A stretch of DNA of 51,547 nucleotides from Phycisphaerae bacterium (GTDB taxonomy: Bacteria > Planctomycetota > Phycisphaerae > UBA1845), in assembly GCA_024102815.1 (NCBI GenBank), contig JAGFJJ010000042.1, positions 1 to 51,547 on the forward strand. Reading direction: 5' to 3'. This document shows, piece after piece, positions 26,423 to 42,012 of the stretch (position 1 is its first letter; each line of letters opens with the position of its first letter). The position numbers and the translations under genes are program-made. The notes under the pieces were generated by a model that was given only the letters and a program-made list of their open reading frames with translations, was not told the DNA's origin and did not search any database.

Positions 26423-26868
26423 ACTTCTCGTTGTCACGAACAGCCTGCGCATTGGTTCTCTCGATTGGGACTCAGATCCTGGTCGGATGCAGCGCTACGC
26501 GTCAGGCCCACTCGCCGATGGAAGGCACGACCCGGACCGAAGATGTATCCCATGTGATTTACAACTACCCTTGGCTTAAGAAGAATGTTTACCTTCGCGA
26601 TTTTCAAGTCGACCGTGGTGAAGGAAACATCCTCCGGGTTGCGGCTCAATTGCATTCCCTGGACGAGCACACGTCTCGAACAGTTTACATCAAGACCGAT
26701 TTCTATTCCGGGGAATTTGCCGCGGGCGGCAGATTGGTCGATTCCACGGCGTGGGAGCCCTTCGTTCTCGAACCTCGCCGACGCATGACGTATCAGGCCA
26801 ACAGCTTGGTTCCAGCGGATGATTTTCGAGTGTACGTCAACTACCCACAGGACATCGGCAAGCCATGA
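26419..26868 (+). CDS. YcfL/DUF1425-like lipoprotein 2
   Basis: 149 residues, lipobox ILVGC (Cys24), and the same beta-sandwich pattern as its neighbour (ILRVAAQLHSLDEHTSRTVY; WEPFVLEPRRRMTY; LVPADDFRVYVNYP). The ATG overlaps the TGA of the preceding gene, and its own stop overlaps the next ATG. The tandem arrangement and equal length suggest gene duplication within the operon. Confidence 0.78.
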   Translation: MNFSLSRTACALVLSIGTQILVGCSATRQAHSPMEGTTRTEDVSHVIYNYPWLKKNVYLRDFQVDRGEGNILRVAAQLHSLDEHTSRTVYIKTDFYSGEFAAGGRLVDSTAWEPFVLEPRRRMTYQANSLVPADDFRVYVNYPQDIGKP

Positions 26869-28130
26869 TACCCCCAACGACACGTTACGTTCGACAAGCC
26901 GTCGTCACGACATTTCTCCTAGGTACTGTCGGCCTCTTGGGGTGTAACCGTCCCGAGTATGAGGATCCGATAGTTCACGTGCCGCCGCGCCAACCGGAAT
27001 CTCCTCCGATTCCTGAACGCGAACCCGTGTACCGGCGGGAACTAACCCCGTGTGAAACAGACACGTTGGCGGCCCGAGATTGCTTTGATCTCGCCTACCG
27101 GAGCGCCGGATCTCCGCGGTTGACGTTTGTCGCCAACACCGCCGCCAGTATTGTGGCTGATACGCGGGCACCCTCGGTCGGCAGCGGTCCGGCGGCGGGT
27201 CCGGACGATGTCGCTCCGAAGGTCGAGGTGAAGGACTCTCCCAATGCCGTTGTCGTAGCTACTGGGCAGGGCGCTGCGAGACAGGACCCAGCTGGCGAGG
27301 GCTTGACCGCCACATCTGATGCAGTGGGGCTTCCCTCGGCCGAGCGAATGGCGGTTCCGGTTGATCGCGCCGCGGTGGAAGACCATTTCATGGACGCCTT
27401 CGCAGCAATCTCCCCCGCTGTTCGGATCATCAATCTGGGCGTAGCGCGCGAACAACTTGAACGGGAGGCGCGCACGGTCGGAAGCGGCGGCGATGAGTCG
27501 TTCCTTCAAGCCCTCCGCGACAGGAACTTGGCGGACATTGCCGTGTTGTTCGATGTACGCGTTCTGCGGCACGGAACACCTTCGAGGAACGACGTTTCTT
27601 TGCGAACTGAGGTTGCTGTCCAGGGGCGAACCGCTACATCATCGGCCGAAGGATCGGCGAGCACCTCTTCCATCATCACCATCGCGCTGACAGGGCGCGC
27701 GGTGCGAATCAATGACGGCAGCGTGATTGCCACAGTCACGCCGCCTCGAAGTGAAGTCGTTGGCGAAGTCGCCCTCGGACAAGCACTGCGCGACGCTTGC
27801 GAGTGCGGAGCCGCCGCCCTGGCGTCCAAGATGTGTCTCCGACTGGGCGATGCTGCCGGGCGAATCACAATCGCGACCGTTCGAGTGTTACAGGCTCCCA
27901 ACAACGAGTGCATTCTCGAGTTGATGCACTGGATTGAGACGGAGTTTCCGGGTTCCCGGACGGTGTTCCGGAGCTTCAGTACCGGTCAAGGAGAATTCAC
28001 GGTCGAGTTGCAAGGCGGGATGGGTGATTTGATCTTGCGGGCTACTCGGCAAACGCAGCTACCGAACCTCAAGCTGGACGCTGGACGATCGAGCGAGAAT
28101 ACGTTGACCTTCGTGGCCCGCAAGAGCTGA
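26865..28130 (+). CDS. Lipoprotein with CsgG/LpoB-like central region
   Basis: 421 residues, lipobox VGLLGC (Cys27). A Pro-rich linker and a variable region to about residue 165 precede a domain that may be CsgG/LpoB-like (RIINLGVAREQLERE, then DIAVLFDVRVL, ITIALTGRAVRINDGSVIAT and VGEVALGQALRDACECGAAA). The C-terminus has a short alpha/beta repeat (FPGSRTVFRSFSTGQGEFTVEL). ATGA overlap with the second YcfL-like gene. The domain call is tentative; the lipoprotein call is firm. Possibly part of a multi-lipoprotein complex. Confidence 0.6.
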   Translation: MIPPTTRYVRQAVVTTFLLGTVGLLGCNRPEYEDPIVHVPPRQPESPPIPEREPVYRRELTPCETDTLAARDCFDLAYRSAGSPRLTFVANTAASIVADTRAPSVGSGPAAGPDDVAPKVEVKDSPNAVVVATGQGAARQDPAGEGLTATSDAVGLPSAERMAVPVDRAAVEDHFMDAFAAISPAVRIINLGVAREQLEREARTVGSGGDESFLQALRDRNLADIAVLFDVRVLRHGTPSRNDVSLRTEVAVQGRTATSSAEGSASTSSIITIALTGRAVRINDGSVIATVTPPRSEVVGEVALGQALRDACECGAAALASKMCLRLGDAAGRITIATVRVLQAPNNECILELMHWIETEFPGSRTVFRSFSTGQGEFTVELQGGMGDLILRATRQTQLPNLKLDAGRSSENTLTFVARKS

Positions 28131-28140
28131 GGGAATCATT

Positions 28141-28821
28141 GTGAACAAACGAGTACGCTATCGTGGCACGCGGCCGTCGTCTCCAAGCGGACGACGCGAA
28201 GTGGCCGTATTGGCAACTTCGATATTTGCAGCGGCGATCGGCCTGCAATGCAGCAGACCCAAGACCTTGGCATGCTATTCACGAACACCCACGGACATCA
28301 AGGCCGTCAGGAATCTACCGCATGACCGGCCGCTGCGCGTGGGGGTTGCCGTTGACCTACCCGCTCCAGTCCGACCCGCCCAAAAGCATGATCGGGATTT
28401 TGACCCGATGCTCGCAGAACAATCGGCTTACCGTGCAGCCCGCGACACCGCGGAAGCATTCATCAGCCAGGCCAAGGATTCGGGAAGGTTCGAGTCGATT
28501 GGTTGGGTGCGGCCTGAAACAATGCAGGCGCTCGACTGTCAATTGGAGTTGAGCGTTAGCCTCGAATCGAGCAGCCAAAAGGGTGTTCGATATTGCCTCG
28601 GCCGAATCGTGGCCAACATCTATGATAATGAACATTCACGGTTGTTGGATCGCGTCGTTCTTTTCCACGAAGTCATGTACACACCCAGGAATAGCAAACA
28701 GCCCTACGTGGCCTACGACGGAAGTAGCGTTCACAAGATTGTGCGAACGGGGCTGTTCGATCAATTGATGTGCTATCTGGCGGACATCCCTTATTCAGAC
28801 AAGAACTCTTGCTCAGAATGA
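28141..28821 (+). CDS. Exported protein, probable lipoprotein
   Basis: 226 residues from a GTG start 10 bp after the preceding stop. The N-terminus is basic with one hydrophobic segment ending in GLQC (Cys37). The Gln before Cys is unusual for a lipobox, so the signal may instead be cleaved by another route or the Cys may not be lipidated. The mature part has a CsgG-like strand start (RPLRVGVAVDLPAPVRP) and a later LSVSLESSSQKGVRYCLG. It is the last gene of the lipoprotein operon. Family not recognised. Confidence 0.6.
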   Translation: MNKRVRYRGTRPSSPSGRREVAVLATSIFAAAIGLQCSRPKTLACYSRTPTDIKAVRNLPHDRPLRVGVAVDLPAPVRPAQKHDRDFDPMLAEQSAYRAARDTAEAFISQAKDSGRFESIGWVRPETMQALDCQLELSVSLESSSQKGVRYCLGRIVANIYDNEHSRLLDRVVLFHEVMYTPRNSKQPYVAYDGSSVHKIVRTGLFDQLMCYLADIPYSDKNSCSE

Positions 28822-29263: not shown

Positions 29264-30238
29264 ATGGCCGTGCCGCGAGAGAAACAATCTGGCGTGCCGG
29301 ACCCGCCGGGTCCAGGCGACCCAAGGCACTGCGCATTCTGCAAAGAACTACTGACCGCGAAGACCGCCAAGCAATTCCGAAACGAGCTAATCTGCAACGA
29401 ATGCGTCGCTGTTGTTGCGGCAGCCCAGCGGACACCGAAGCCAGCGACAAGCATCGCAGACCGGGCGGCCGCGATCGACACCGCCGCCATCGCGATGAAC
29501 CGGCTGGCAATGGGCGTTGTTCTCAGCCTCCTTTCCGTTGGAGGGGTGGTCATCGGCGCCATCCTCGTTGGGCATGCCACAGAGGATACATGGGAGCTGG
29601 ACAACGCTGCGAAGATTCACACGCTCGCTGCCGAGGCTAATCGACTTGACACAACAGACCAAAGGGCAGCGCTGTCAAAGTACGAGGAACTCAATCGCCT
29701 AGTTGGAAAACGTCAGGTCCACGACCCGGAACTCAAGCAAGTCGTCGAAACAGCCAAGAACCGATGCGGCGAGCTTGAGTCGAAGTTGGCCGCCGAACTC
29801 GCCCGTGAGCGAGAGGAAGCCCGCCAGCGTGAGCAGTCAAAGCGCGACAAACGACGACGGGATGAACTGGAGCAGCAGCAGAAAGAGGAAGCCAGACAGC
29901 GGGAACTGGCGCAGTGGCAGGAACAGGAGCGGCGGGAGAAGGAGGCGAGGGACAAACCGATCGACATCAGCGACATCGGCGTTAAGCTCGTTGACACAAC
30001 CCCGTCACTCGATTTGTGTACCTACTCCTGGAAGGCGACGGTTACGAATCGGACAGCCTCGCCGGTGTCACTCTCCGTCATCCTTACGCTCTATGACGAG
30101 GAGGGGTACGAGCTGGAATCCGATTACAAATTTGGAGTGATAATTGGTGGGCAAAAGAATGAGGTCGTCACGGGCCAAGGCATGACGAAACTATCGACTT
30201 TCAACCGGGCGGCGAAATACGGAGTCAGCGTTCGGTGA
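29264..30238 (+). CDS. Zinc-ribbon, membrane-spanning coiled-coil protein
   Basis: 324 residues from the ATG at 29264 (GGAGGT eight bases upstream). Order: two-CxxC zinc ribbon (HCAFCKELL at 23-26 and LICNECV at 44-47), a single transmembrane helix (GVVLSLLSVGGVVIGAILV, ~85-105), a long charged coiled coil rich in Arg, Glu and Gln near 165-235, and a C-terminal beta domain (about 240-324). It is the first gene of the ubiquitin-like cassette, about 50 bp before the Ubl gene. The zinc ribbon faces one side and the coiled coil the other. It could be a scaffold or substrate receptor for conjugation; no enzyme motif is present. Confidence 0.7.
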   Translation: MAVPREKQSGVPDPPGPGDPRHCAFCKELLTAKTAKQFRNELICNECVAVVAAAQRTPKPATSIADRAAAIDTAAIAMNRLAMGVVLSLLSVGGVVIGAILVGHATEDTWELDNAAKIHTLAAEANRLDTTDQRAALSKYEELNRLVGKRQVHDPELKQVVETAKNRCGELESKLAAELAREREEARQREQSKRDKRRRDELEQQQKEEARQRELAQWQEQERREKEARDKPIDISDIGVKLVDTTPSLDLCTYSWKATVTNRTASPVSLSVILTLYDEEGYELESDYKFGVIIGGQKNEVVTGQGMTKLSTFNRAAKYGVSVR

Positions 30239-30289
30239 AATCTCTGCCAAAGTGGTAGGGCCTGAGAATGACAAAACGGTGAAACGAAC

Positions 30290-30571
30290 ATGGGCATGGT
30301 TAATGTCGAGATTTGGGGCAGCACGGGAAACAAGCGACAGAATGCCGAGCTTCCCGACGACGCGCCGGTGGACAAGATTATGGCCGTGCTCGTCGAACGG
30401 ATGAATCTACCCCGAAACGGGCCGGATGGAGCGCCAATGTCGTACAAGTTCCACCACAAGGCGTCAGGGAAACAGCTTCAGGATGAGGACACGCTCGCCG
30501 GGGCGTCCGTGGCGAACGGAGACATCTTGCGGCTTGTGCCTGAGATCACAGCGGGACAGGTCGTCTGTTAA
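30290..30571 (+). CDS. Ubiquitin-like modifier (YukD/EsaB-like beta-grasp)
   Basis: 93 residues that follow the beta-grasp pattern: VNVEIWGSTGNKRQNAELP strands, a helix APVDKIMAVLVERMNLP, YKFHHKASGKQLQDEDTLAG in the position of ubiquitin's Lys48 loop, and a last strand GDILRLVPEITAG. It ends ITAG followed by QVVC, with no terminal Gly-Gly. A C-terminal Cys or cleavage to expose the Gly after ITA may be used for transfer; the cassette also encodes a JAMM protease that could trim it. The gene precedes ExbB/ExbD, E1, JAMM, FHA, RING and E2 genes in one direction, which is the main argument that it is a conjugated modifier and not a plain YukD. Confidence 0.85.
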   Translation: MGMVNVEIWGSTGNKRQNAELPDDAPVDKIMAVLVERMNLPRNGPDGAPMSYKFHHKASGKQLQDEDTLAGASVANGDILRLVPEITAGQVVC

Positions 30572-30626
30572 ACGCGTCGCCAGCACCGCGTCGATATTCG
30601 GCGCCTTAATGTGCGAGGTAATCGGA

Positions 30627-31310
30627 ATGGTGGACACGCTCTATTGGCTAACGCGAGGCGGCGTGTTGATGGTGCCGATCGCGGCCTGCGGAGTAGCGGC
30701 CGCTATTCTCATCATCGAACGCGCAGTCGCATACCGGCGAATGCTCTCCGATCCCTCAGAAGTGGTGTCGGCGATAACGCAACATCTGCGGCGGCTCGAT
30801 GTTTCTGCGGCACTGCGGGAGTGCCAAGGGTCAACCGACATCAGCGCGAGCGTCGTCGCCCCGGCCCTCGTGCATGAGGTGGAATCCACTGGAAGGACGC
30901 GGTCCGATTTGACGGTCGTGCAGGCGATCGTCGAAGAGGAGATGCAGGTTTCAGCGCTCCCCCGAATGTATCGAAGGTTGAGCCTTCTGGCGACTGTCGG
31001 ACGCGTGGCACCGTTGCTTGGTCTGCTGGGGACCATCCAGGGGATGATTCAGATGTTTCTTGTCGTAAGAGGCGCGGGCATGGGAATGTCGTCGGCACTT
31101 GCCGGCGGGATGGCCGTTGCCTTGTCTACGACGTTCGCCGGGCTTTGCGTGGCAATCCCGGTCCAAATCGCTGAGGGCGTATTTGAAGAGAAGATCGATG
31201 CGGCGATTCCACGCCTTCGGCGCGACGTCTCCGCATTCCTTTCAGCACTGCGGGAATTGAGATTCCAAGAGCGGGTGATACGCATCGAGCACGCGGATCT
31301 GGCGGTATGA
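30627..31310 (+). CDS. ExbB/TolQ/MotA-family proton channel subunit
   Basis: 227 residues; start at the ATG at 30627, which has GAGGT seven bases upstream (an ORF start at 30426 overlaps the Ubl in another frame). Three membrane segments: near residues 10-35, 125-150 (LLATVGRVAPLLGLLGTIQG, the family signature) and 165-190. Family role: forms the pentameric proton channel with ExbD, turning proton-motive force into mechanical work. It overlaps the next gene by ATGA. Its presence inside a ubiquitin-like cassette is unusual and suggests energy coupling of the conjugation machinery or of its export. Confidence 0.9.
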   Translation: MVDTLYWLTRGGVLMVPIAACGVAAAILIIERAVAYRRMLSDPSEVVSAITQHLRRLDVSAALRECQGSTDISASVVAPALVHEVESTGRTRSDLTVVQAIVEEEMQVSALPRMYRRLSLLATVGRVAPLLGLLGTIQGMIQMFLVVRGAGMGMSSALAGGMAVALSTTFAGLCVAIPVQIAEGVFEEKIDAAIPRLRRDVSAFLSALRELRFQERVIRIEHADLAV

Positions 31311-31981
31311 CCTGGATTCTGAGAAAGCACGGCGACGGCCGGACGTTCGGCCCCCTTGATGCTGAGATCCTTCGGCGCTGGGCCTGGGACGGAATGATTG
31401 ATCCGGACGACGAGGTGTCGAATGATGATGGCTTGACCTGGATTCGTGCAAGCAATGATTCCGCGCTCGACTCGTTCCTCCGGGAACAGCTGCCGCCGCC
31501 GTCGCTCGTTGGAGCTGCGACGATTCTGGGGACCACGCGATCCCGCAGGCGCAAGAGAAGCCTGTTGGATATGACCCCGCTCGTCGACTGCGTCTTCCTG
31601 CTGCTCATCTTCTTCTTCGTTGCAACGACGTTCAATGCCGGGGCGCCGTCGGCCGCAGGATCAAACGCCGGCTCCGACGTGGTGCCCTTGGATGTTTCGA
31701 TTCCGAAGATTGACGACAGGCCGGAGTACGCAATTCCCGAGCCGCGGCACATTCGCGTGGTGGTCTCCGAAAGCGGGGCAATCAGCGTGAATGGCCAGGA
31801 GGTACCACTAGCCTCGTTGGTGAATTCTATTCGTTCGCTCAGAGACCAACACGAAGGGGTCACGGCAATCGTCCTGGCCGACGCGCAGGTCAAGTACGGA
31901 CAGATTGCCCGCGTTGTGGCAGCGATCGAGGCTGGAGGAGTTGAACGAGTCCTAATCGGTGCAGCAGGATCGGACAAGTGA
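31307..31981 (+). CDS. GYF-like domain fused to ExbD
   Basis: 224 residues. Residues 1-60 match a GYF_2-type peptide-binding domain (MTWILRKHGDGRTFGPLDAE, then GMIDPDDEVSNDDGLTWIRA). One transmembrane helix follows, with the ExbD signature MTPLVDCVFLLLIFFFV, where Asp94 is the conserved proton-carrying residue. The rest is an ExbD-like periplasmic domain (RVVVSESGAISVNGQ and VTAIVLADAQVKYGQI). GYF domains bind Pro-rich segments, so the fusion could recruit a partner of the cassette to the proton channel. The stop overlaps the E1 frame. Confidence 0.9.
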   Translation: MTWILRKHGDGRTFGPLDAEILRRWAWDGMIDPDDEVSNDDGLTWIRASNDSALDSFLREQLPPPSLVGAATILGTTRSRRRKRSLLDMTPLVDCVFLLLIFFFVATTFNAGAPSAAGSNAGSDVVPLDVSIPKIDDRPEYAIPEPRHIRVVVSESGAISVNGQEVPLASLVNSIRSLRDQHEGVTAIVLADAQVKYGQIARVVAAIEAGGVERVLIGAAGSDK

Positions 31982-32001
31982 CCGGATCGGGAGGAAAACA
32001 G

Positions 32002-33201
32002 ATGAAGGAGGGCGTCCTGCGTATCGAGAATCTCGACGATGTAAGGAATGACCGATTTCATCGGTTCAAGCTCATCGGCTGGTGGGATCAGGAGCGCCTA
32101 CACAACGCCAAGATTCTCGTCGTTGGCGCAGGTGCCCTAGGCAACGAGATCGTCAAGGATCTCGCTCTCCTTGGCGTGGGCCAAGTGTTTGTCATCGACC
32201 TCGACACTGTCGAGCATTCCAACCTTTCGCGTTCGGTCATGTTTCGCGCCGGCGACGAAGGGCGGTCCAAGGCAGAGGCGGTCGCGGAGTCCGCACGGAA
32301 CATCTACCCAGAAATCAGAATCCAACCACTCCGCGGCAACGCCGTTTATGATCTCGGTCTGGGTGTGTTCCGGTGGTCTGATCTTGTGATTGGTGGGCTG
32401 GACAACCGCGAGGCCCGCCTTGCCATCAACCGCAGCGCTTTCAAAGTCAACCGCCCATGGATCGATGGGGCCATCGAGAAGCTCGACGGCGTTGCTCGCG
32501 TTTTTGCCCCCGGCGGGCCCTGCTACGAGTGCACTATGTCCAAGGAGGATTGGCGACTACTTGAACACCGTCGTTCGTGCGCCCTGCTCACTCGCAAACA
32601 GATGTCCGAAGGCAAGGTGCCGACGACGCCAACGTCGGCGTCCATCATTGCCGCGATTCAGGTTCAAGAAGCGGTCAAGCTCCTGCATGGCCTGCCGACA
32701 CTCGCCGGGAAAGGATATCACTTCTTCGGTCTGACGCACGATTCGTACGTCGTCGAGTACTCACGCAAGGAAGAATGCTACAGCCACGATGCGTTCGGCA
32801 AGATATCCTCAATCAACAAGTCCACCGCGGAGACTGCCCTGCATGAGCTCCTTTCAGCCGTAAAGGAGAAGCTTGGCCCCGATACTGTCATCGAGCTGAA
32901 CACCGATGTGCTGATTAGGCTCAATTGTACGCGATGCGGCACATCTGAGCCCGTGTTCAGGTCCCTCGGCCGTGTGACCGAGGGCGAAGGACGTTGTCCG
33001 CATTGCAAGGAGATGCGAGAGGTCAAGACCATCTCAACCTTGTACGGAGATGAGGACTTTCTGGAATTGAGCTTCCGCGAACTCGGCGTTCCCCTGTTCG
33101 ACATTATCACCGCACGTAATGGGGATCGCCGACTGCACATCGAGTTTGGAGGAGACCGATCGACGGTGCTCGGAGCGCTGACTGAGGAGGGTTCCCAATG
33201 A
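32002..33201 (+). CDS. E1-like activating enzyme (ThiF/MoeB/UBA family)
   Basis: 399 residues from the ATG at 32002 (GGAGG seven bases upstream; a GTG at 31978 is less likely). Rossmann-type adenylation domain: VVGAGALGNE (Gly42, 44, 47), DLDTVEHSNLSRS, then the GLDNREARL helix. A zinc-site half CYEC (174/177) is followed by Cys193, a candidate thioester Cys, and a crossover segment GKVPTTPTSASIIAAIQ like that of UBA-type E1s. A C-terminal zinc ribbon (Cys309, 312, 332, 335) follows, then ~60 residues of alpha/beta. Predicted to adenylate the Ubl C-terminus and pass it to the E2. Its stop overlaps the JAMM gene (ATGA). Confidence 0.9.
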   Translation: MKEGVLRIENLDDVRNDRFHRFKLIGWWDQERLHNAKILVVGAGALGNEIVKDLALLGVGQVFVIDLDTVEHSNLSRSVMFRAGDEGRSKAEAVAESARNIYPEIRIQPLRGNAVYDLGLGVFRWSDLVIGGLDNREARLAINRSAFKVNRPWIDGAIEKLDGVARVFAPGGPCYECTMSKEDWRLLEHRRSCALLTRKQMSEGKVPTTPTSASIIAAIQVQEAVKLLHGLPTLAGKGYHFFGLTHDSYVVEYSRKEECYSHDAFGKISSINKSTAETALHELLSAVKEKLGPDTVIELNTDVLIRLNCTRCGTSEPVFRSLGRVTEGEGRCPHCKEMREVKTISTLYGDEDFLELSFRELGVPLFDIITARNGDRRLHIEFGGDRSTVLGALTEEGSQ

Positions 33202-34004
33202 CGGTGGAATCTAGCTCCGCGCCGGACACCGCCCGAATAGCGCTCGGCGAGCTTCGCATTGCTCCCTTTCCGGTAGATTGTGACTGGGATCCCCTTCGCG
33301 TCCATATTGCACAAGAGCCCTATGATGCGATCATGGCTCATTCCAAGGAGAGCGACCGCATCGAGCTGTGCGGCGTTCTCGTCGGCGAGATTCTCAAGGA
33401 CGAGCTCGGCCCCTTTCTCAGAGTGACACATACGATTCGTGGCGAACATGCGAAGAACGAAGCGGTGCAGGTAACCCTCACGCAAGAGACTTGGGCGCAC
33501 ATTCACCGCGTAATGGATTCGGAGCATGATGGGCGCGCGATCGTCGGGTGGTATCACACGCATCCGGGATTCGGAATCTTCCTCTCTCAGATGGACGTGT
33601 TCATCCACCGTCATTTCTTCGATTTGCCTTGGCAGATCGCATTCGTCGTCGACCCGCAAAGCGGAGATGAAGGTGTCTTCACCTGGCGAGACGGCGCGCC
33701 CACCCGGACACGGCGATATTGGGTCGGGCAGGTGGAACGTATGTTGATAACCGGCGCTGGAACCAAGGGTGTTGATCTCGCAACTGTACTTGCTGCGCTA
33801 CGCACCGACGTAGATGCCGCCAAGAGCGAGCTGACTTGGTCACGCAAACGCCTTCGCCGACTACGCCTCGGTTACTGGGTCTTGTTCATTCTGATAATAG
33901 CGCTGGCTGCGTGGATTGCGGGCGGGATTGTCTGGCCGGCCGAGTGCAGGGAACTGATGAACCGGGCGACGGACTGGGCACGCAAGCTTGTCGAAACTCG
34001 ATGA
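33198..34004 (+). CDS. Membrane-anchored JAMM/MPN isopeptidase
   Basis: 268 residues. JAMM zinc-protease motif is complete: Glu56 in ELCGVLVGE, His120 and His122 in GWYHTHPGFG, Ser130 and Asp133 in FLSQMD. A coiled basic segment precedes a transmembrane helix near 224-246 (LGYWVLFILIIALAAWIAGG). The predicted activity is release or processing of the Ubl at the inner-membrane surface; it may create the active C-terminus of the Ubl. Coupled to the E1 gene by ATGA, with GGAGG upstream. This is the analogue of the deubiquitinase step. Confidence 0.92.
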   Translation: MTVESSSAPDTARIALGELRIAPFPVDCDWDPLRVHIAQEPYDAIMAHSKESDRIELCGVLVGEILKDELGPFLRVTHTIRGEHAKNEAVQVTLTQETWAHIHRVMDSEHDGRAIVGWYHTHPGFGIFLSQMDVFIHRHFFDLPWQIAFVVDPQSGDEGVFTWRDGAPTRTRRYWVGQVERMLITGAGTKGVDLATVLAALRTDVDAAKSELTWSRKRLRRLRLGYWVLFILIIALAAWIAGGIVWPAECRELMNRATDWARKLVETR

Positions 34005-34016
34005 GGTAACTGTTTC

Positions 34017-35264
34017 ATGGGCGATGGTGACAAGATCAGAATCGACTGGGACGACATCAATCGCCCGGAGATCGCCGAGAAAGTCGAGCGAGATCGCCGC
34101 TTCCGGCAGGCAGCAGCCCATTATGAGCAAGCGACGCAGGCCGGAACTGGGGCCGGCAGCGGCACTGAGCACAGGGTTTACGGGACGGTCGCTGGAGTGT
34201 CTCCCACAGCTGCCTCAAGAGGTGGCATGACGCGGCTGATGTATCACCCCGCCTTCAGCGCGGGGCTTGCGGCCTTGGTGGCGGCATTCCTCGCGTGGGC
34301 AGTCACCGAGCCTATTCCCTATTTCCAACAACGACTCGACATCGAAGCGGAACTGAGCCAGTACCTTGAGTCGAAGGGCTACACTCTCCTTTCGTTGATG
34401 CAGGAATCCGCTGCAACCCAGGAGTGGGTGCTGGAGGAGTTCAAGACAAAGACACGGATCAACATCTACGTCGAGACCATGATCTGGTTCGGTCTCATCG
34501 GCGCGGCAGTCGGCGCAGCCCTGTCTTCGGTCGAGTACGTCGTCGGTCGAGCCTACAGCGCCGCAAAATCTGCGGGCTTGATCGGCCTCGGTGTCGGCTT
34601 CATCGGCGGCGCTCTTGCCGGTGGGGTCGCGCAGTTCCTTTATTCGTCGCTTACATCGTTGAACGACGAGGGCAGTCAGACTATTCAGATTCTGGCACGC
34701 AGTGCAGGCTGGGGGCTTGCCGGCATGGTGCTTGGCGCAGGCCAGGGTATTGCCATGCGTTCGGGCAAGAAGGTTCGAAACGGCCTGATCGGTGGCCTTC
34801 TTGGAGGGCTGATTGGTGGGGCGCTCTTCGACCCAATTGCCAATTCGCTGCAATCCGGCTGGGCAAGTCGGATGCTCGCGCTATGCGTCATTGGCGCGGC
34901 GACGGGCGTGCTGATCGGAATCGTGGAAAGTGTGCTCAAGGATGCGTGGCTACTCGTGACAGGTGGCCCGCTGACCGGCAAGCAGTTTGTGATCTATAAA
35001 AACCCGACGGTATTCGGAAGCGCTCCCAAGGCGGACATCTACCTCTTCAAGGACGCGTCCGTGGAACCTCGTCATGCGGCATTGCACACGCAGACGCGAG
35101 GGTACGAAATTGAAGATCTCGGAACTCCCGCTGGTACGATGGTCAACGGGCAACGGATTGGTCGGCACCGCCTGAAGAGCGGTGATTCGATCCAGATTGG
35201 ACAATACGCCTTCTCCTACACAGAAAAGTCGCGGGCAAAGCCGGGGACTGCTGGCGGCCATTGA
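34017..35264 (+). CDS. Polytopic membrane protein with C-terminal FHA domain
   Basis: 415 residues. A soluble charged N-terminus (residues 1-70) is followed by several Gly-rich hydrophobic segments between about 73 and 315 (FSAGLAALVAAFLAWAV; GLIGLGVGFIGGALAGG; GLIGGLLGGLIGGALF), consistent with a compact helical membrane domain. The C-terminal ~90 residues are an FHA domain (VIYKNPTVFGSAPKADIYLF, VEPRHAAL, GTMVNGQRI, HRLKSGDSIQIG). FHA domains read phosphothreonine, so kinase signalling may control the cassette. No kinase gene is seen within this stretch. It follows the JAMM gene by 12 bp. Confidence 0.85.
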   Translation: MGDGDKIRIDWDDINRPEIAEKVERDRRFRQAAAHYEQATQAGTGAGSGTEHRVYGTVAGVSPTAASRGGMTRLMYHPAFSAGLAALVAAFLAWAVTEPIPYFQQRLDIEAELSQYLESKGYTLLSLMQESAATQEWVLEEFKTKTRINIYVETMIWFGLIGAAVGAALSSVEYVVGRAYSAAKSAGLIGLGVGFIGGALAGGVAQFLYSSLTSLNDEGSQTIQILARSAGWGLAGMVLGAGQGIAMRSGKKVRNGLIGGLLGGLIGGALFDPIANSLQSGWASRMLALCVIGAATGVLIGIVESVLKDAWLLVTGGPLTGKQFVIYKNPTVFGSAPKADIYLFKDASVEPRHAALHTQTRGYEIEDLGTPAGTMVNGQRIGRHRLKSGDSIQIGQYAFSYTEKSRAKPGTAGGH

Positions 35265-35303
35265 GTATGGCGCTGTTCGCGCCGATGTCGATGCGGAAAC
35301 GAA

Positions 35304-36344
35304 ATGGACAAGATCGTCTTTACATGCGAATGCGGGAAGAGCGTAACGGTTGATCGTAAGTTCGCCGGACGACGCGGCCGATGCCCCCGCTGTAATGCTG
35401 TCGTCCAGATTCCGGCGGACGGCCCGGCAGTCGGCCACGCAGCGGCTCCGGGGCCATCACCAGTCGAGACGACGCGCAGCATGGTGCCCGACGCCAGGAG
35501 CAGGTCACTGCCCGAGGTGCTCCCGGCCCGGATGCGCGCCAATCGCCTCATAGCCGGCAAACTCTGCTCAATCTGCCAGACAGCGCTCGCCGTGGGAGAT
35601 GAAGTGCGTAACTGTGAGCACTGTCGCTCATCCTTCCACGCAAGCTGCTGGCAGGAAGCGGAAGGATGCGGCACGTACGGTTGCCAGAATTCACCCGCGG
35701 CGGCACGAGCGAATACAAAGCAGCAGCCCGCGACCCTAAAGAGTGAACCGGTCGGCGGTGCGCCGATCGAAGGGTTTGCGGTAGCGACTCGCGCCGCTCT
35801 CTCTGAGACAAGCCCGCCGAGAATCTGGCGGTCACGCACAATACGCAGCGTTCTTATCGTTGCAGGCATCGTCGTGCTCGGCGCGGTCGGGTTCGTGGCA
35901 TTGCGCAACAATGAACTGAGGACCAAGCTCGCCAAGTGCTCGTCACGCTCTGGTATTATGGTCCGCGTTTACTACGGCAGCTATTTGTCCACGAACGATG
36001 TCGTATTCGACTTGCGGGGAGTCGAGGGTAGTTCCGTTCGCAGGATTGATCCTGTTCATCTCCTTCTCCAATTCGGCCAGTTGCTCGACAAGCAAGCAAC
36101 GAGGCGCTTGATCTTGGCCCGCGATGGTCGACTACTCATGTACCTTCGTTCGTCTGACCTAAGCGAACTTGCTAACGAGTACACGCATGGCAATCCCATG
36201 TGGTCGTTCAACCACTTACCGGAACGGCTGAAGACGATGTCGGGAAACAACGCCTATCCAACGTGGGAGGGTGGCTGGCTTGGTGTTCTGAAGGGACAAT
36301 CAGAGGATCTCAATCAATTCATTACCGACTGGACTGGTTGCTGA
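35304..36344 (+). CDS. RING-type zinc protein with membrane helix (candidate E3)
   Basis: 346 residues. Residues 8-30 form a first zinc ribbon (CECGKS... then RGRCPRC). Residues 88-127 form a RING-like treble-clef of the prokaryotic type: CSICQTALAVGDEVRNCEHC, then Cys115 after SSFHASC and Cys122/Cys127 in GCGTYGC. A transmembrane helix is near 180-200 (SVLIVAGIVVLGAVGFVAL). The remaining ~140 residues are an unknown alpha/beta domain ending TDWTGC. It is the best E3-ligase candidate in the cassette and could link the E2 to substrates at the membrane. Activity is inferred. Confidence 0.8.
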   Translation: MDKIVFTCECGKSVTVDRKFAGRRGRCPRCNAVVQIPADGPAVGHAAAPGPSPVETTRSMVPDARSRSLPEVLPARMRANRLIAGKLCSICQTALAVGDEVRNCEHCRSSFHASCWQEAEGCGTYGCQNSPAAARANTKQQPATLKSEPVGGAPIEGFAVATRAALSETSPPRIWRSRTIRSVLIVAGIVVLGAVGFVALRNNELRTKLAKCSSRSGIMVRVYYGSYLSTNDVVFDLRGVEGSSVRRIDPVHLLLQFGQLLDKQATRRLILARDGRLLMYLRSSDLSELANEYTHGNPMWSFNHLPERLKTMSGNNAYPTWEGGWLGVLKGQSEDLNQFITDWTGC

Positions 36345-36407
36345 CGAGTCTGGCAATGCAACCTATACCGCCACTGCGAAGTGTGCTGGGCAAGCGAGGT
36401 TGATTCG

Positions 36408-37763
36408 ATGTCAATGCGACTACGACGGCTGCAAGCGGACTTCGAGCGTCTCCGGGCGCGATGCGACCGCAGTCCCTTCCTGATGATCCGAAGCACGAAG
36501 GGCGATCCCCCCGAACGTTACGAGATCGCCTTTGCGGTCAAGGGCCTGCGTGTCGATTCCGAGAGCCGCATCGTCGAAGTCACAGATCACGTCGCCGAGG
36601 TCGTTCTCACGAGCGCATATCCCCGTCAGGCGCCCCAGTGCAGGATGCTGACGCCCATCTTCCATCCGAACATCGACGCGGCATCGATCTGCATCGGGGA
36701 CCACTGGGCGGCTTCCGAGTCGCTCGACGACTTGGTTGTCCGCATTGCGGAAATCATTACTTTTCAGAGTTACAACACCAAGAGCCCTTTGAATGGAGAA
36801 GCGGCTCGATGGGCCGATCACAACGAATCATTGCTCCCGGTAGATTCCGTTGATCTGTGGCCGGCTGAGGAGAAATCCGTCAGAGCAGCGGCCGCCGTGC
36901 CGACGGCGCGCGCGGACGGCAACGAGGCCCGGTGCGTGAATTGTGGAACCACTGGCGGACATGCCCTGTTGACGGCGGACGCTCAGGGGCGCTGGATATG
37001 TCGCGACTGCGCCGGTGCATGTCAAGTGTGCAAGGGGCAAGTGGTGGTGGGCGAACTACTCTGTCGGCCATGTCAGGCAAAGGCAAGTGGTCGGATTGAG
37101 CATGCGCGACAAGCGTTGGCGCAGGGAAATGCGAATGAAGCGTGCGCAATCCTCGACCAGGCCCTCAGTGACTTTCCTGGCTTTCAGCCCCTCAGGGACG
37201 AAAAGCTGGCGGTGGTCGAGGCAATGGGGCAAGCACAGACGATTGTGGTACAACTCAAGGCGACGCTCAAGGCGCATCGTTATGAACACGCTGGGCGACT
37301 CTTGGCAAGAGTCAGAGAATTGCCGGTGCGTCTAGCTAATCTCGATAGCGCCACAGAGTTGTGTGCATCTCGCTGCACAAAGGCAGGTGCGTTGCTTGAT
37401 CGCGCGCAACTCGAGATGGCTAGTGGAGGGGACCTGGGTGAGGCACTGCTGCGTAGAGCAAAGCAGGTATGTGATGACCACGCGGGTGTCAACGCGGCGA
37501 TCGAACGCCTTGAGACGCAGAAGTGCCGGATCCCAGAAGTCGAGGGTCGGCTCTTGGCTGCATTGGAAAATGGAGATCCCTTTCATGCTCGCAGTGCGCT
37601 CTCTGAGTTGCAAAGGAACGGCGTCCTTCCCAAGGAGGCTGCCGTCCAGTTGGAAGCCCAAGTGGCTGTCCTTGAGAACTCTCGACGAACTGTCAGGCGA
37701 TGTGCAGTGGGGGCTGTGATTTTGTCAATCGTTGTCGCGGCTGTCACAATGGCGTCGAGGTGA
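36408..37763 (+). CDS. E2-like (UBC-fold) enzyme with zinc module and C-terminal anchor
   Basis: 451 residues from the ATG at 36408 (GAGGT upstream). Residues 1-140 follow the UBC fold: LRRLQADFERLRAR, VRLT-type strands, PRQAPQCRMLTPIFHPNI, then ASICIGDHW with the presumed catalytic Cys95 placed just after the HPN motif as in eukaryotic E2s. Residues 176-222 hold four CxxC pairs (CVNC, CRDC, CQVC, CRPC), a RING/treble-clef-like zinc module. Helical repeats follow to about 420 and a hydrophobic C-terminal helix (AVGAVILSIVVAAVTMASR). The single chain could therefore act as a tail-anchored E2-E3-type enzyme. Last gene of the cassette. Confidence 0.88.
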   Translation: MSMRLRRLQADFERLRARCDRSPFLMIRSTKGDPPERYEIAFAVKGLRVDSESRIVEVTDHVAEVVLTSAYPRQAPQCRMLTPIFHPNIDAASICIGDHWAASESLDDLVVRIAEIITFQSYNTKSPLNGEAARWADHNESLLPVDSVDLWPAEEKSVRAAAAVPTARADGNEARCVNCGTTGGHALLTADAQGRWICRDCAGACQVCKGQVVVGELLCRPCQAKASGRIEHARQALAQGNANEACAILDQALSDFPGFQPLRDEKLAVVEAMGQAQTIVVQLKATLKAHRYEHAGRLLARVRELPVRLANLDSATELCASRCTKAGALLDRAQLEMASGGDLGEALLRRAKQVCDDHAGVNAAIERLETQKCRIPEVEGRLLAALENGDPFHARSALSELQRNGVLPKEAAVQLEAQVAVLENSRRTVRRCAVGAVILSIVVAAVTMASR

Positions 37764-38180
37764 CTGCGAGGCACCATAATGCACGCCGACGGAGCCTTGC
37801 TCGCCGTGGCGCAGCCACCCCGAGGCAACCAGTTTCTCGAGCTCCTTGGTCGGTGAGGTCATGTCCTGGAAGCCTTGGCCGAACTGCACGACCTCGAAAT
37901 GATCGTCGTCGAGTTGCGTGGCCAACTGCGTGGCGTTCCAGGGGTCGATGGCCACTTCACGAATTTTGAACAGCTTGTCCAATTCGTTGAGCCGCTGGCA
38001 GATGACGCCGTAGTCGACGACATTGCCCGGGGTCATCTCGATCAGTCCCTGCCGCGCCCAAGTCACGTAAGGCGCACGATGGCGCTTCTCGGGCTTGGGT
38101 TGCGTTGCCTCGTGATCGAAGGGTAATCTGGTATCGGCGTGGGCGAAGGCGGCCGAGTCTTCAACGGTGTCGCAAGTCAC
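37725..38180 (-). pseudogene. Fragment of a phage terminase large subunit
   Basis: The minus frame encodes a terminase large-subunit nuclease-domain fragment (APYVTWARQGLIEMTPGNVV, then VAIDPWNATQLATQLDDDHF and VVQFGQGFQDMTSPTKELEK). Upstream and downstream parts of the gene are missing, and the frame ends inside the E2 gene on the opposite strand (overlap of about 39 bp). It is a decayed relic marking former phage insertion near the 3' end of the Ubl cassette. It is a different type from the GpA-like terminase at 39.7-42.0 kb. Confidence 0.75.
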
Positions 38181-38227
38181 CCTCGCGAGTCACCCATAGA
38201 GTTGTCCCTTGTGTGGAAGCTGTCCCG

Positions 38228-39328
38228 ATGGCTACAAGAGATGGCCCGAAAGAGCCTTCGCGTCCCACCGTGAAGCGGCTGTTTGCCGTATCGGGGAACC
38301 GCTGCGCCTTCCCCAAGTGCTCCACGCCTTTGATTGATCCCGAGTCTGGGTCAGTCGTTGGAGAGATTTGCCACATCAAGGGTGAGAAATCTGGGGCGGC
38401 GCGATACGACGTTGCTCAGTCCAATGTAGATCGTCACGGGTTCGACAATCTCATACTGTTCTGCAACGTGCATCACAAAATCGTGGACGATGATGAAATC
38501 GCGTATACGGTCGACCGGTTGATGGGAATGAAACGGGAACACGAATCTCGACACTTCGGTTCGTTACCCGTAGAAGAAGCGACCGCCGAACGATTCGTCA
38601 AATTGACCATCAACAATTTTGTGTCCCAAGCGACGGTCATCACGAACCAAGGCCAAACGGGAGGGCAGACGGCGCACACGATACACAACTATTTCGGCGC
38701 CCCCGGCACGGTAGAGGCAGTGCGACTTGAGGCGAAGCTGGAATTGGCCGGGGATCTCCAACTCATGAAGGCCATCGGCTGTCCAGGGATGCGCCTGACG
38801 GTGGTTTGTCGAAGTTCGCGTCCGGCAAGAATCCGTTCAGCTCATTTTCTCATCGATGGCGTCAATGTGATGGAAGGGTTGCAGCAGGGATTCGGCGCTG
38901 ATTTCGGGTACACGCCGGTGGAAGGGTCAACGCAGACGTTGGATGTCACCCTCATCCCGCTCACTCGACCGAACTCGCCGGAGGGCTATGTTTTGAATCT
39001 AGACGATGCGGCTCGTTTTCTGTACCCATTGCCGTTGCAGTCAACCGCGTTGGCGCTACGTGTCAAGTCGGAGAGTCTGTCAATCGCTGTCAAGTTCCTT
39101 GATGACACCAATCAGGTCGTTCTCGCAGGCGAACCGATAGTGGATACCCTCCGGGGCGTCCACCACCTGTTCCAGAAAACTCCCGGGCATCTGAAGGTGC
39201 CCGTCAATATTTCCGTTAGAGTCAGTTCGACCACGCCTCCGGGTCCTGAGGCGGCCGACCTCATAGGCAAAACCAATCAAAATCATGTAATCCTTACCGA
39301 GCCGGAGGACGGAACGACAGAGTCGTAG
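38228..39328 (+). CDS. HNH endonuclease-domain protein
   Basis: 366 residues from the ATG at 38228. The N-terminal 90 residues are an HNH domain: VSGNRCAFPKCSTPLIDPES, then GEICHIKGEKSGA, NLILFCNVHHKIVDDDE with the catalytic His pairs. A helical linker and a long beta-rich C-terminal region (about 150-366) of unknown fold follow. It stands alone, between phage debris, and could be a stand-alone defence nuclease or a homing-type element. No partner gene is obvious on the same strand. Confidence 0.78.
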   Translation: MATRDGPKEPSRPTVKRLFAVSGNRCAFPKCSTPLIDPESGSVVGEICHIKGEKSGAARYDVAQSNVDRHGFDNLILFCNVHHKIVDDDEIAYTVDRLMGMKREHESRHFGSLPVEEATAERFVKLTINNFVSQATVITNQGQTGGQTAHTIHNYFGAPGTVEAVRLEAKLELAGDLQLMKAIGCPGMRLTVVCRSSRPARIRSAHFLIDGVNVMEGLQQGFGADFGYTPVEGSTQTLDVTLIPLTRPNSPEGYVLNLDDAARFLYPLPLQSTALALRVKSESLSIAVKFLDDTNQVVLAGEPIVDTLRGVHHLFQKTPGHLKVPVNISVRVSSTTPPGPEAADLIGKTNQNHVILTEPEDGTTES

Positions 39329-39735
39329 CGTGGCTGGATCTGGAGGGTTCGGACGCCTGCCTTGCAGCGACGAACCAGCGGGGGCGCCCCGAAGACGGCG
39401 CCTTACTACGGAGTCCAGGTTCTCCAATTCATGGCTTCGATATCCTCCGCCGACGCGAGGTGGGCAGCGCAGCGACCGGCGGAAAGGGCCACCATCATGG
39501 CCCGCTCGGCGTCTACGCGTCGGTCGCGGCCGCGCCTGCGGCTTCTTCGCTTCTTGGTTTCCACACAGCGCCTATTGCCTCGCTGTGGGGCTCATCGCCC
39601 AGGGTCCTTCCAATCTCTCGTTCCGCAACATCGAGGGCTTCGTAGAGCACCTCGGCCGCGGAAGGAAACATCCGCAATCGGGACAGACAATCCCTTGAGG
39701 ATTCACGGGAGTCGGCCAGCGTCTGCGCCCGACCG
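39329..39735. other. Downstream flank of terminase, with decayed small frames
   Basis: Minus-strand frames after the terminase stop include a start of a small zinc-type protein (PQGIVCPDCGC, near 39680) that breaks off, suggesting a frameshifted phage gene, and a short candidate ORF at 39406-39564 listed separately. No other gene supported. Confidence 0.4.
39406..39564 (-). CDS. Candidate small phage protein
   Basis: 52 residues from a GTG at 39564: basic N-terminus (METKKRRSRRRGRDRR) followed by AMMVALSAGRCAAHLASAED and an end NWRTWTP. Position after the GpA-like terminase suits a small phage protein. The ribosome-binding site is poor (GAGG 11 bases upstream), so this is tentative. Confidence 0.35.
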   Translation of the reverse strand: METKKRRSRRRGRDRRVDAERAMMVALSAGRCAAHLASAEDIEAMNWRTWTP

Positions 39736-42012
39736 TCATGCCCAACGCCGGCGGAGATCCTCTTGCGTATAGTGCTTGCGCTGCGGCCTGGCGTCATTTT
39801 CCCCAAAAGCCTGTACGCCGAGCATGGACGCAGCCACGGCGCTTCCGACCAAACAGTCCAGCCAGTGATTGTCGGGGCCCTCGGCGCGCAGTTTCCATTC
39901 GTCTACCGTGCGGCCACGGCCCGCGGTCTTCACGCGGTACTCGGCGGTCAGGTGCTCGGCCAGCAGGCGATGCTGCTCGAGCTTGCGCCCGAAGAGGGAC
40001 AGCGAGCCGGCGTCGCCCATCGACACGGCAAGCCGCGCGTGGACGAACGACTTCCAGTAGTTGGTGTCGAAAACAACATGGCGGACGGCGCGTTTGCCGG
40101 TGACAACCGGAATCAGCCAATGGTGTCCCACGCGCTCACCGGGCTTGCGCCGGTATTCTGTGAATGGGATACTCGATGCGCCGACGTAGCGGCCATGCGA
40201 CGGCATGACGATGTTCGCATACTGGCTCTGCCGACAGAATTGATAAACCACGTCGGTACTCTGGCCCCAGTTGGCATCGATGAGGCAACGATCAATCCGC
40301 ACCATCGCGCCATCATCCCGGCGCCACTCACGCTCCAAAGTCGCCTTGGTCAGTCGTTCCAGGCCGGCGTAGATCGCGCCTTCGAGTCCGGCACGCGGCG
40401 CCGCCATCGCCAAGGTGCGGCGAATATCACGCAGCGTGAAGTACTCGGCCTTCTGGTCCGGTTCGGTGCCGTAGTCAACAACATAGCCGGTGAAGTCATC
40501 CCCCCACGCCGCTACCAGGTAGAAGAGCGCCTTGCCCTGCACGTCGATGAACATGGTGAGATGCGTACAGCCGATGGGCACCTCGCCGCGCTTGTGCCCG
40601 TTGACCTTGGCCGCGATCTGCTCGGCGGTGAGCAGATCCTCGTCGGCGTGCTCCTCGGGAAGTGGCTCGTTCTGATATTCGGCCCAGAACGCCGCCTCGC
40701 CGCGATCGAGCTTCAGGTTCATCGCGTGTTGAATGGCGGACAGTTCATCCGGGTGATGGCGCTCCGGCCACGCGACCTCCGCGCCCTCGTCCATTGCCTC
40801 GCGGTTGGCACGGTAGAACTCGGTTGCGTCGGTGATTCCGCGATCAGCGCGCATGCCTTCGCGCCACAGTTCCGCATACCGCGTCCACATCGCCTCGTTG
40901 GTCGGGAACGAGTAGACCATCTTCGTGCGTTCGCCTTGCCACTGTGGATGCTTGTCGCGGTCGAGAATGCGGTCGGCCAGATCATCGGGCCGCACGACGG
41001 TCAGGGTCATCAACCCGGCGATCTTGCGCCCGGGCCCGGCCAGGCCGAGGATCGCTCCGGCGAGGATGCGCTCGCGCGTCACGCACTGCGACGGCGACCG
41101 CGCCGACTCGTCGGTCTGCGGATCATCGATGAGCACGAGCGCCGGACGGATCGAGGACCCGTCCACCCGTTTGTGTTTCATGCCCCGGATGCGACCGGTG
41201 ATGCCGGCCACGCGGATGATGGCGCCCGAGGCCTGCGAGTCGGGGATCGTCGGCAGGACGATCTCCCGCGCCGTCCAACCCATGTGCGTCTGCTTGCCCC
41301 GGTGAAGCTGCCCGCCGGCGCGCTGGTGGATGCCCTCCAGCGATCGGATGGGGAAGACAACCTCGGGGAAGTCCTCCAGCAGCGCGTCGCTGTTCTCCAG
41401 TTCGGCCTTGATCGATTCCAGCATGTTCGACGCGTGCTCTTCATCGCTGCCGATTAGCGCGACGAACTCGCGATGGCCATACAGCAGCGCCCACAGGCAG
41501 GCCGTCTCGCACATCGACGTCTTGCCGCTTCCTCGCGGCATGGCCATCGCGAAGAGGCCGCCCTCCAGCACGGCCAGTTCGATCTTGGCGACGACCTTCA
41601 GATGGTCCGGCGACCACGGCAGGTGGAACGTGGCGGGGAAGTACTGCTCGCAGAAGAACCGGAAGTCCCGCTCGGCCCGGCGCTTTCGATCGGCGTTGAC
41701 CACGACGGGCATCTCGCCGATGTCGCGCCCGCTCAGCGACAGCTCGCGGTTGCGCTGCGCGGCGCGTTCGCGATGCGCGTCGTAGCCGGTCAGGCCGTCG
41801 GGCTCCGGCTGGGGGCGATGGCGCTCAATCACCAGCCACGCGACGTAGCGCAGCAGATCGATGGTGCGCGGGTCGGCCGACGATGTGATCCGCAGACCCG
41901 CGCGCGTGCGATGCCGGTACAACTGCCGCTCGCTGATTACTTCGCCGATCGGCGTGCTGTTGAGCAGTTGTACGAGCTGCGTCGGTCGCAGGCGGCGCGG
42001 ATCAATCGCCAC
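39736..42012 (-). CDS. Phage terminase large subunit (GpA type)
   Basis: About 758 residues from a GTG at 42012 (GTGGCGATTGATCCG); the longer frame to 42087 overlaps the small upstream gene. Walker A is MPRGSGKTSM near 158-165 and Walker B ALVLIDDPQTDES, then a nuclease domain with LTMFIDVQGKALFYLVAAW, IDANWGQSTDVV, and a C-terminal DNHWLDCLVGSAVAA of GpA type. The role is ATP-driven DNA packaging into a prohead. It overlaps the preceding small gene by ~10 bases, so they are coupled. No portal or capsid genes are visible, so the prophage is truncated or continues outside the window. Confidence 0.9.
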   Translation of the reverse strand: MAIDPRRLRPTQLVQLLNSTPIGEVISERQLYRHRTRAGLRITSSADPRTIDLLRYVAWLVIERHRPQPEPDGLTGYDAHRERAAQRNRELSLSGRDIGEMPVVVNADRKRRAERDFRFFCEQYFPATFHLPWSPDHLKVVAKIELAVLEGGLFAMAMPRGSGKTSMCETACLWALLYGHREFVALIGSDEEHASNMLESIKAELENSDALLEDFPEVVFPIRSLEGIHQRAGGQLHRGKQTHMGWTAREIVLPTIPDSQASGAIIRVAGITGRIRGMKHKRVDGSSIRPALVLIDDPQTDESARSPSQCVTRERILAGAILGLAGPGRKIAGLMTLTVVRPDDLADRILDRDKHPQWQGERTKMVYSFPTNEAMWTRYAELWREGMRADRGITDATEFYRANREAMDEGAEVAWPERHHPDELSAIQHAMNLKLDRGEAAFWAEYQNEPLPEEHADEDLLTAEQIAAKVNGHKRGEVPIGCTHLTMFIDVQGKALFYLVAAWGDDFTGYVVDYGTEPDQKAEYFTLRDIRRTLAMAAPRAGLEGAIYAGLERLTKATLEREWRRDDGAMVRIDRCLIDANWGQSTDVVYQFCRQSQYANIVMPSHGRYVGASSIPFTEYRRKPGERVGHHWLIPVVTGKRAVRHVVFDTNYWKSFVHARLAVSMGDAGSLSLFGRKLEQHRLLAEHLTAEYRVKTAGRGRTVDEWKLRAEGPDNHWLDCLVGSAVAASMLGVQAFGENDARPQRKHYTQEDLRRRWA

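What the first reader, a model, noticed from the sequence alone, without database searches (positions are those of the whole stretch)
29264..37763. Complete membrane-linked ubiquitin-like conjugation cassette with Ubl, E1, E2, RING, JAMM and a proton channel
Nine consecutive plus-strand genes encode every step of ubiquitin-like transfer: a YukD-like Ubl, a ThiF-type E1, a UBC-fold E2 with an HPN...C active site, a RING-type zinc protein and a JAMM isopeptidase. An ExbB/GYF-ExbD pair, an FHA-domain membrane protein and a zinc-ribbon membrane protein are interleaved. The zinc-ribbon, JAMM, FHA, RING and E2 proteins all have predicted membrane segments, so conjugation should take place at the membrane. 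Bacterial Ubl systems with E1/E2/JAMM are known from comparative and anti-phage work (for example the Bil system), but I know of no characterised one that includes a proton-motive-force channel, FHA and RING together.
Basis: partly seen in the sequence, partly recalled or inferred. Interest (0 to 1): 0.95.

Follow-up and report, generated by a model that had tools for sequence, protein, structure and literature searches.

The report
Membrane ubiquitin-like tagging operon in bacteria
This bacterium carries, in one tight row of genes, a ubiquitin-like tag together with tag-activating, tag-carrying, RING-type and tag-removing enzymes and a proton-channel pair, which are predicted to attach and remove the tag at the cell membrane and would make a eukaryote-like control route testable in bacteria.

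Summary
The cassette is real. Pfam places YukD-Ubl, MotA/ExbB, ExbD, ThiF-E1, JAB, FHA, Prok-RING_1 and UBC in order on the + strand. The core order Ubl-E1-JAMM-FHA-RING-E2 recurs exactly in 26 of 59 loci, from nine family labels, with active-site residues nearly invariant. Strongest new evidence for conjugation: all 53 recognised Ubls reach an invariant Ala-Gly (PEITAG in this type) and stop exactly there (18) or carry a variable tail; the window's is PEITAG|QVVC. That is the signature of a trimmed ubiquitin precursor. JAMM, FHA and RING are membrane-anchored across the family, so membrane-based conjugation is well supported. ExbB/ExbD, however, are in none of the 58 other loci, nearest relative included: a lineage-specific addition of unproven role. 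In seven loci a RING is instead joined through membrane helices to an HtrA-like protease; in others RING is fused to FHA. The basic kind (bacterial E1/E2/RING/JAMM/YukD) was, as I recall, predicted in 2011; I found no characterised member in papers I could search. No biochemistry was done.

The parts
29264..30238 (+). protein with CxxC pairs (zinc-ribbon-like by eye), one membrane segment, charged coiled-coil-like stretch; profile match only in the nearest relative L032
   Evidence: (no Pfam)
30290..30571 (+). YukD-type ubiquitin-like protein, 93 aa, the only YukD match in the genome
   Evidence: (YukD 1.5e-11)
30539..30556 (+). codons 84-89 of the Ubl, PEITAG: invariant end of the predicted mature Ubl; QVVC (30557-30568) is the predicted removable tail
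30609..31310 (+). ExbB/TolQ-type channel subunit; found only in this locus
31307..31981 (+). ExbD/TolR-type subunit with N-terminal GYF-like domain; Asp of the membrane helix aligns with that of ExbD in 6tyi
32002..33201 (+). E1-like enzyme: ThiF/MoeB adenylation domain, conserved Cys193, two further CxxC pairs, C-terminal part superposing on E1 ubiquitin-fold-domain region (alternative start GTG 31978)
33198..34004 (+). JAMM/JAB metallopeptidase (E56, H120-T-H122, S130, D133) with one C-terminal membrane segment
34017..35264 (+). multi-pass membrane protein with C-terminal FHA domain
35304..36344 (+). zinc ribbon, RING (C4HC3), one membrane segment, C-terminal part without a Pfam match
35565..35684 (+). 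stretch with the RING zinc ligands C88, C91, C104, C107, H112, C115, C122, C127
36408..37763 (+). E2-like UBC domain (HPN at 36663-36671, active-site Cys at 36690-36692), cysteine pairs (by eye), C-terminal membrane segment

Best explanation
The operon encodes a YukD-type ubiquitin-like protein (Ubl), an E1, an E2, a RING protein and a JAMM peptidase with their family-conserved active-site or zinc residues, and likely works as a tagging cycle at the inner membrane in which the JAMM peptidase, predicted to be membrane-anchored, would trim the Ubl to its invariant ...ITAG end, the E1 and E2 would pass it on, and the RING protein, also predicted to be membrane-anchored, would place it on substrates that the FHA membrane protein likely recruits by phosphothreonine. 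The same JAMM peptidase would take the tag off again. Shown by sequence: gene set, order, active-site residues, invariant Ala-Gly end with variable tail, hydrophobic anchors of JAMM, FHA and RING throughout the family. Inferred: trimming, thioester transfer, ligation to protein substrates, phospho-gating, and that the substrates are membrane or envelope proteins (suggested by RING-membrane-HtrA-protease proteins in relatives). [quoted passage not shown]
Confidence: 0.65

Rival explanations
1. Same chemistry, but the role is anti-phage defence (Bil- or Bub-like), carried here as cargo of a mobile island.
For: Window context: serine integrase 8305-10272 (phrog_95), phage-type primase, MmeI-type restriction enzyme, terminase fragment at 37728-38180 and terminase gene at 39739-42012, HNH-like protein at 38225-39325 resembling CBASS/PDC effectors. 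Sporadic in the own family: 3 of 51 genomes, own included. E1 matches PADLOC E1-E2 models (best 3.2e-17) and BilD (3.7e-7), JAMM matches JAB models (best 2.2e-5).
Against: In another family of the class 18 of 26 genomes have it, and 15 of 41 loci looked at carry the same Wzc-like gene within 9.5 kb on the opposite strand, which looks like a resident function. Ubl, E2, RING and FHA match no PADLOC model at 0.01. No relative found in IMG/VR.
Confidence: 0.2
2. ExbB/ExbD are passengers: an unrelated channel pair inserted by chance (or by a mis-assembly), and the rest is an ordinary membrane Ubl cassette without use of proton motive force.
For: Absent from 58 of 58 other loci even at permissive settings; E1's closest relative L032 lacks it; GYF-ExbD has no counterpart at 1e-12 in the 393 other class genomes searched.
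Against: Gaps of 37 bp (Ubl-ExbB), -4 bp (ExbB-ExbD) and 20 bp with a ribosome site (ExbD-E1) fit co-transcription; 13 database relatives of GYF-ExbD exist, nine over its full length at 54-72% identity, so the protein is a maintained family, though the neighbours of those genes could not be read.
Confidence: 0.5
3. The Ubl/E1 pair is a sulfur-carrier or T7SS-type module and proteins are not tagged.
For: E1 core is ThiF/MoeB-like; YukD of B. subtilis is reported as not conjugated and T7SS-linked (PMC1779556, passages).
Against: No WXG100 match in the genome, while the B. subtilis control rings; this is its only YukD match; E2 and JAMM with conserved active sites and a RING in the same operon; precursor-like Ubl ends.
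Confidence: 0.06
4. Membrane-protein quality control: tagged inner-membrane proteins are handed to a protease, an ERAD-like route.
For: Seven loci encode RING + membrane helices + HtrA/trypsin-like protease with GNSGG and an NRHV/NKHV motif in one open frame.
Against: The window has no such protein; no tag reader or unfoldase was recognised in the operon; the only proteasome-family match in the genome is one 229-residue frame, not further identified.
Confidence: 0.3

Closest known systems
Bacterial YukD-Ubl/E1/E2/RING/JAB operons predicted by Burroughs, Iyer and Aravind (Mol BioSyst 2011; recalled, paper not held)
   Same: as recalled: the same protein set, YukD-like Ubls proposed to be conjugated, RING E3s next to E1, E2 and JAB genes, E1 with C-terminal UFD
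   Different: ExbB/ExbD between Ubl and E1, the AG-plus-variable-tail signature, RING-HtrA proteins and E2 tail anchor: I cannot tell whether that paper noted any of these
Caldiarchaeum subterraneum ubiquitylation operon (PMC5654768, passages)
   Same: Ub, E1, E2, small RING and nearby Rpn11/JAMM; pro-ubiquitin trimmed by JAMM; shown in vitro
   Different: GG end, archaeal; no FHA, ExbB/D or membrane anchors mentioned in the passages read
Bil and Bub systems (Bub passages in PMC13373217; gene content of both recalled)
   Same: bacterial Ubl, E1, E2 and JAB-type peptidase as one operon (recalled)
   Different: here RING and FHA, membrane anchors, Rpn11-like JAMM; only a weak BilD match; regulators such as CapK/CapS were not searched for
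ExbB-ExbD / TolQ-TolR energizers
   Same: Pfam families over cut-off, Asp in the ExbD helix
   Different: GYF-like domain on ExbD; no TonB/TolA match among the cassette proteins
Eukaryotic FHA-RING ligases RNF8, CHFR and membrane RING ligases of ERAD (recalled)
   Same: FHA with RING (fused in relatives), membrane-anchored RING
   Different: bacterial, own Ubl and JAMM in the same operon; no common descent tested

Membership tests
Ubl-conjugation operon (E1/E2/RING/JAMM) | Ubl with a free or exposable C-terminal Gly | tested here: met
   53 of 53 recognised loci Ubls and 119 of 120 listed database hits have the AG end; exposure by cleavage in the window is inferred
Ubl-conjugation operon (E1/E2/RING/JAMM) | E1 adenylation domain with an invariant Cys after the CxxC | tested here: met
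   ThiF 4.5e-48; Cys193 33 of 33; that Cys193 is the catalytic one is inferred from its place
Ubl-conjugation operon (E1/E2/RING/JAMM) | UBC-fold E2 with HPN and Cys | tested here: met
   (by sequence)
Ubl-conjugation operon (E1/E2/RING/JAMM) | RING cross-brace domain | tested here: met
Ubl-conjugation operon (E1/E2/RING/JAMM) | JAMM motif E...HxH...S..D | tested here: met
Ubl-conjugation operon (E1/E2/RING/JAMM) | covalent Ubl-substrate adducts | not testable with these tools
   needs expression and mass spectrometry
Bil (BilABCD) | Bil protein set | tested here: inconclusive
   PADLOC: only a weak BilD match to E1 (3.7e-7), none for Ubl, E2, RING; whether BilA-C models are in the library was not checked
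Bub | Bub protein set | not tested
   defining papers not held
YukD/EsaB of type VII secretion | YukD domain | tested here: met
YukD/EsaB of type VII secretion | WXG100 proteins in the genome | tested here: not met
   0 matches; B. subtilis control rings; genome 95% complete
ExbB/ExbD proton channel | family domains and helix Asp | tested here: met
ExbB/ExbD as part of the Ubl system | conserved gene linkage | tested here: not met
   0 of 58 other loci
ThiS/MoaD sulfur-carrier operon | no E2 or RING in the operon | tested here: not met
   E2 and RING in the operon

The most novel reading that the evidence does not exclude
A proton-driven, membrane-embedded ubiquitin-like machine: FHA-gated RING/E2 tagging on the cytoplasmic side is mechanically coupled through ExbB/ExbD to the periplasm, doing with proton motive force the cross-membrane job that RING-membrane-HtrA proteases do in relatives: tagging, extracting or remodelling envelope proteins. 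To my knowledge it would be the first ubiquitin-like system energised by an ion gradient.
Probability: 0.2. Interest if true: 0.93.

Novelty: new variant of a known kind. Interest (0 to 1): 0.75.

Why it matters
Bacterial ubiquitin-like conjugation is, as I recall, studied chiefly in phage defence. This family is a fuller set, with RING and FHA, is anchored in the membrane and is common in one family of the class (18 of 26 genomes). It would be a resident, regulatory ubiquitin-like system in bacteria. The Ubl end and the JAMM give one-step tests: does JAMM cut after ITAG, and do lysines then carry LVPEITAG? Parts resembling RPN11, UBE2 and FHA-RING ligases in one operon bear on how the eukaryotic system was assembled.

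Tried and rejected
Looked for ExbB/ExbD in relatives by phmmer, iterated profiles and phmmer --max: only self matches, the best others E 1.5 (ExbB) and 0.76 (ExbD). Viral contigs with the Ubl alignment: none. Direct repeats of 15 bp or more between the integrase flank (6501-10700) and 36001-51547: none, so the island's ends were not found. Promoter and terminator scans were near chance. tRNA-His at 49398 noted, not tied to integration. T7SS reading rejected. The idea that RING is PHD-like (Foldseek list) was weakened by the second alignment, where PHD rows rank lower. The E1 profile ranks UBA7 above ThiF, but UBA7 scores with two domains; its best single domain (105.6 bits) is on a par with ThiF (109), so no claim of closeness to eukaryotic E1s is made. 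Role in exopolysaccharide control was considered: the neighbouring Wzc-like gene is shared by 15 of 41 loci, which as far as their origin is known lie in one family (one locus, L037, has no family label), and none was recognised in the window, so not adopted.

Near-identical pairs (L042/L098, L044/L045) were kept and counted. The 59 loci come from hits of one E1 query; loci cut by contig ends were kept in the denominators.
Full report
Observation. The window is contig C42 of a 5.09 Mb, 79-contig genome. ORFs, start sites and gene spacing confirm nine + strand genes from 29264 to 37763. Pfam gives, in order: no match for the first protein (zinc-ribbon-like CxxC pairs by eye), YukD, MotA_ExbB, ExbD with a weak GYF_2, ThiF, JAB, FHA, Prok-RING_1, UQ_con. 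It is the only UBC match, the only YukD match and the only E1 of this kind (E <= 1e-30) in the genome, which has three further ExbD and three further ExbB matches elsewhere. No NCBIfam model names the Ubl, RING, E2 or first protein (no match at 0.001), and no match of the other five reaches its model's cut-off.

Relatives. The E1 was sought in 392 genomes of the phylum (29 with a match at 1e-30, own included), 397 of the class (26 at 1e-60, own included), 51 of the own family (3 at 1e-40, own included) and 26 of the family of G428 (18 at 1e-60). Fifty-nine loci (58 plus the window) were annotated with profiles iterated from the window proteins. In 33 of 59 an FHA and a RING gene lie within 7 kb on the E1 strand, and 27 of those have all six of Ubl, E1, JAMM, FHA, RING and E2; 26 have exactly the order Ubl-E1-JAMM-FHA-RING-E2, runs of neighbouring RING genes counted once, and the 27th has one more RING gene after the E2. 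The 33 carry 11 of the family labels of the search, the 26 nine of them, and on the E1 tree the 33 form one side of one branch (100/95) against 15 loci of a second type, mostly E1-Ubl-E2-JAMM, most of which lack RING and FHA. Named E1 relatives at 51% identity or more come from Phycisphaerae. The window's sister is L032 (Phycisphaerae PL23b_bin.28; E1 73%; support 100/99), probably the same contig as the hit in G752 of the own family.

The Ubl end. A Ubl was recognised in 53 of 59 loci (not in L038, L060, L099, L103, L105, L118). All 53 run to an invariant Ala-Gly: PEITAG in 38, including all 30 found in the FHA/RING type, and IVAG, VVAG, MVAG, FVAG or LVAG in the other type. Eighteen stop exactly there; the rest carry tails, 1 to 51 residues long in the PEITAG set, that do not align. 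Of the 120 listed among 490 database homologues 119 have [PA]EI[TS]AG and 45 stop there. A conserved end that is the natural terminus in many members and is followed by arbitrary tails in others is what ubiquitin, SUMO and NEDD8 precursors look like, and in the archaeon C. subterraneum a JAMM enzyme was shown to cut such a pro-ubiquitin (PMC5654768, passages read). Hence the prediction that the window's JAMM removes QVVC. The alignment to ubiquitin puts the last Gly on G76 without a gap, but is not significant per domain.

Membrane. Hydropathy (19 residues, mean 1.6 or more) finds a segment in 31 of 33 JAMM, 32 of 32 separate FHA (multi-pass), 43 of 45 RING proteins, 3 of 30 E2s, 0 of 33 E1s. 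So the anchors of JAMM, FHA and RING are family traits; the E2 anchor belongs to the window's subgroup (13 database E2s at 47-78% identity also end in a hydrophobic stretch).

ExbB/ExbD. The pair sits between Ubl and E1 with tight spacing, but no other locus has it; in L032 the Ubl and E1 frames meet. GYF-ExbD has 13 database relatives (nine full-length at 54-72% identity) but none at 1e-12 in 393 other class genomes. The helix Asp aligns with that of ExbD in 6tyi. The protein is therefore a maintained but rare family that entered this operon in the window's lineage, or was lost in L032; whether it works with the Ubl machinery is open, and a mis-assembly is not excluded.

Hints at the role. 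In seven loci (L039, L040, L041, L044, L045, L047, L111) a RING frame continues through membrane helices into an HtrA/trypsin-like domain with GNSGG and an NRHV or NKHV motif (in L041 the RING lies upstream of the start my caller chose, in the same open frame; Pfam Trypsin_2 on L039, and on 4 of 38 RING rows). In 16 of 38 RING rows an FHA domain is found in the RING protein, recalling RNF8 and CHFR. The genome has 36 Ser/Thr kinase matches. In 15 of 41 loci a Wzc-like gene lies on the opposite strand within 9.5 kb, with sugar-transferase, WecG-type and MatE-like genes beyond it in several (clusters; Pfam on one or two members each, MatE below its cut-off): an exopolysaccharide locus. Together these point to phosphorylation-gated tagging of membrane or envelope proteins.

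Context. The window also holds a serine integrase, a phage-type primase, an MmeI-type enzyme, a terminase gene and a terminase fragment, and HNH genes, so the cassette here may be cargo of a mobile island. This keeps defence alive as a role, but presence in 18 of 26 genomes of another family speaks against it as the general one.

Novelty. From recall, Burroughs, Iyer and Aravind predicted bacterial YukD/E1/E2/RING/JAB operons in 2011; the paper is not held. A 2014 survey found no complete ubiquitin toolkit in the bacterial genomes it analysed (PMC4327156, passages). Ten full-text searches showed, in the rows listed, no characterised operon of this type and none with ExbB/ExbD; most subscription papers are outside them. 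I rate it a new variant of a known kind.

Noticed in passing
L039 4088-5383, L040 14958-16241, L041 3926-5236, L044 4106-5410, L045 3906-5213, L047 13598-14887, L111 13196-14530: RING + membrane helices + HtrA/trypsin-like protease in one frame inside the Ubl operon.
   Followed up: partly
L112 12678-13574, L118 3026-4009 and others: FHA domain in the RING protein, as in RNF8/CHFR; 16 of 38 RING rows.
   Followed up: partly
L112 4908-8615, L109 10812-17520; Wzc-like gene in 13 more loci: Exopolysaccharide genes (Wzc-like, sugar transferase, WecG, MatE-like) on the opposite strand near the Ubl operon.
   Followed up: partly
L050, L052, L053, L057-L059, L061, L062, L064-L068: Second operon type, mostly E1-Ubl-E2-JAMM without RING, whose Ubl ends in ..VAG with or without a tail.
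   Followed up: partly
window 8302-13018, 18937-22221, 37725-38180, 39736-42087: Serine integrase, phage primase/polymerase, MmeI-type restriction-modification, terminase fragment and gene: mobile island around the cassette.
   Followed up: partly
window 38225-39328: Protein with a stretch like CBASS/PDC endonuclease effectors just downstream of the E2; no Pfam match.
   Followed up: no
window 22747-28821: Two LpoB-like proteins, a TPR protein and four further proteins without a Pfam match over cut-off on the same strand upstream.
   Followed up: no
L117 3660-5207: Aspartyl protease with TPRs downstream of the E2 gene on the same strand.
   Followed up: no
P0207, P0213: Myxococcus proteins 69% and 66% identical to the Ubl with PEITAG plus a four-residue tail: a possible culturable carrier.
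   Followed up: no
window 565-7966: Response regulators with HD/HDOD domains and a large PAS histidine kinase.
   Followed up: no
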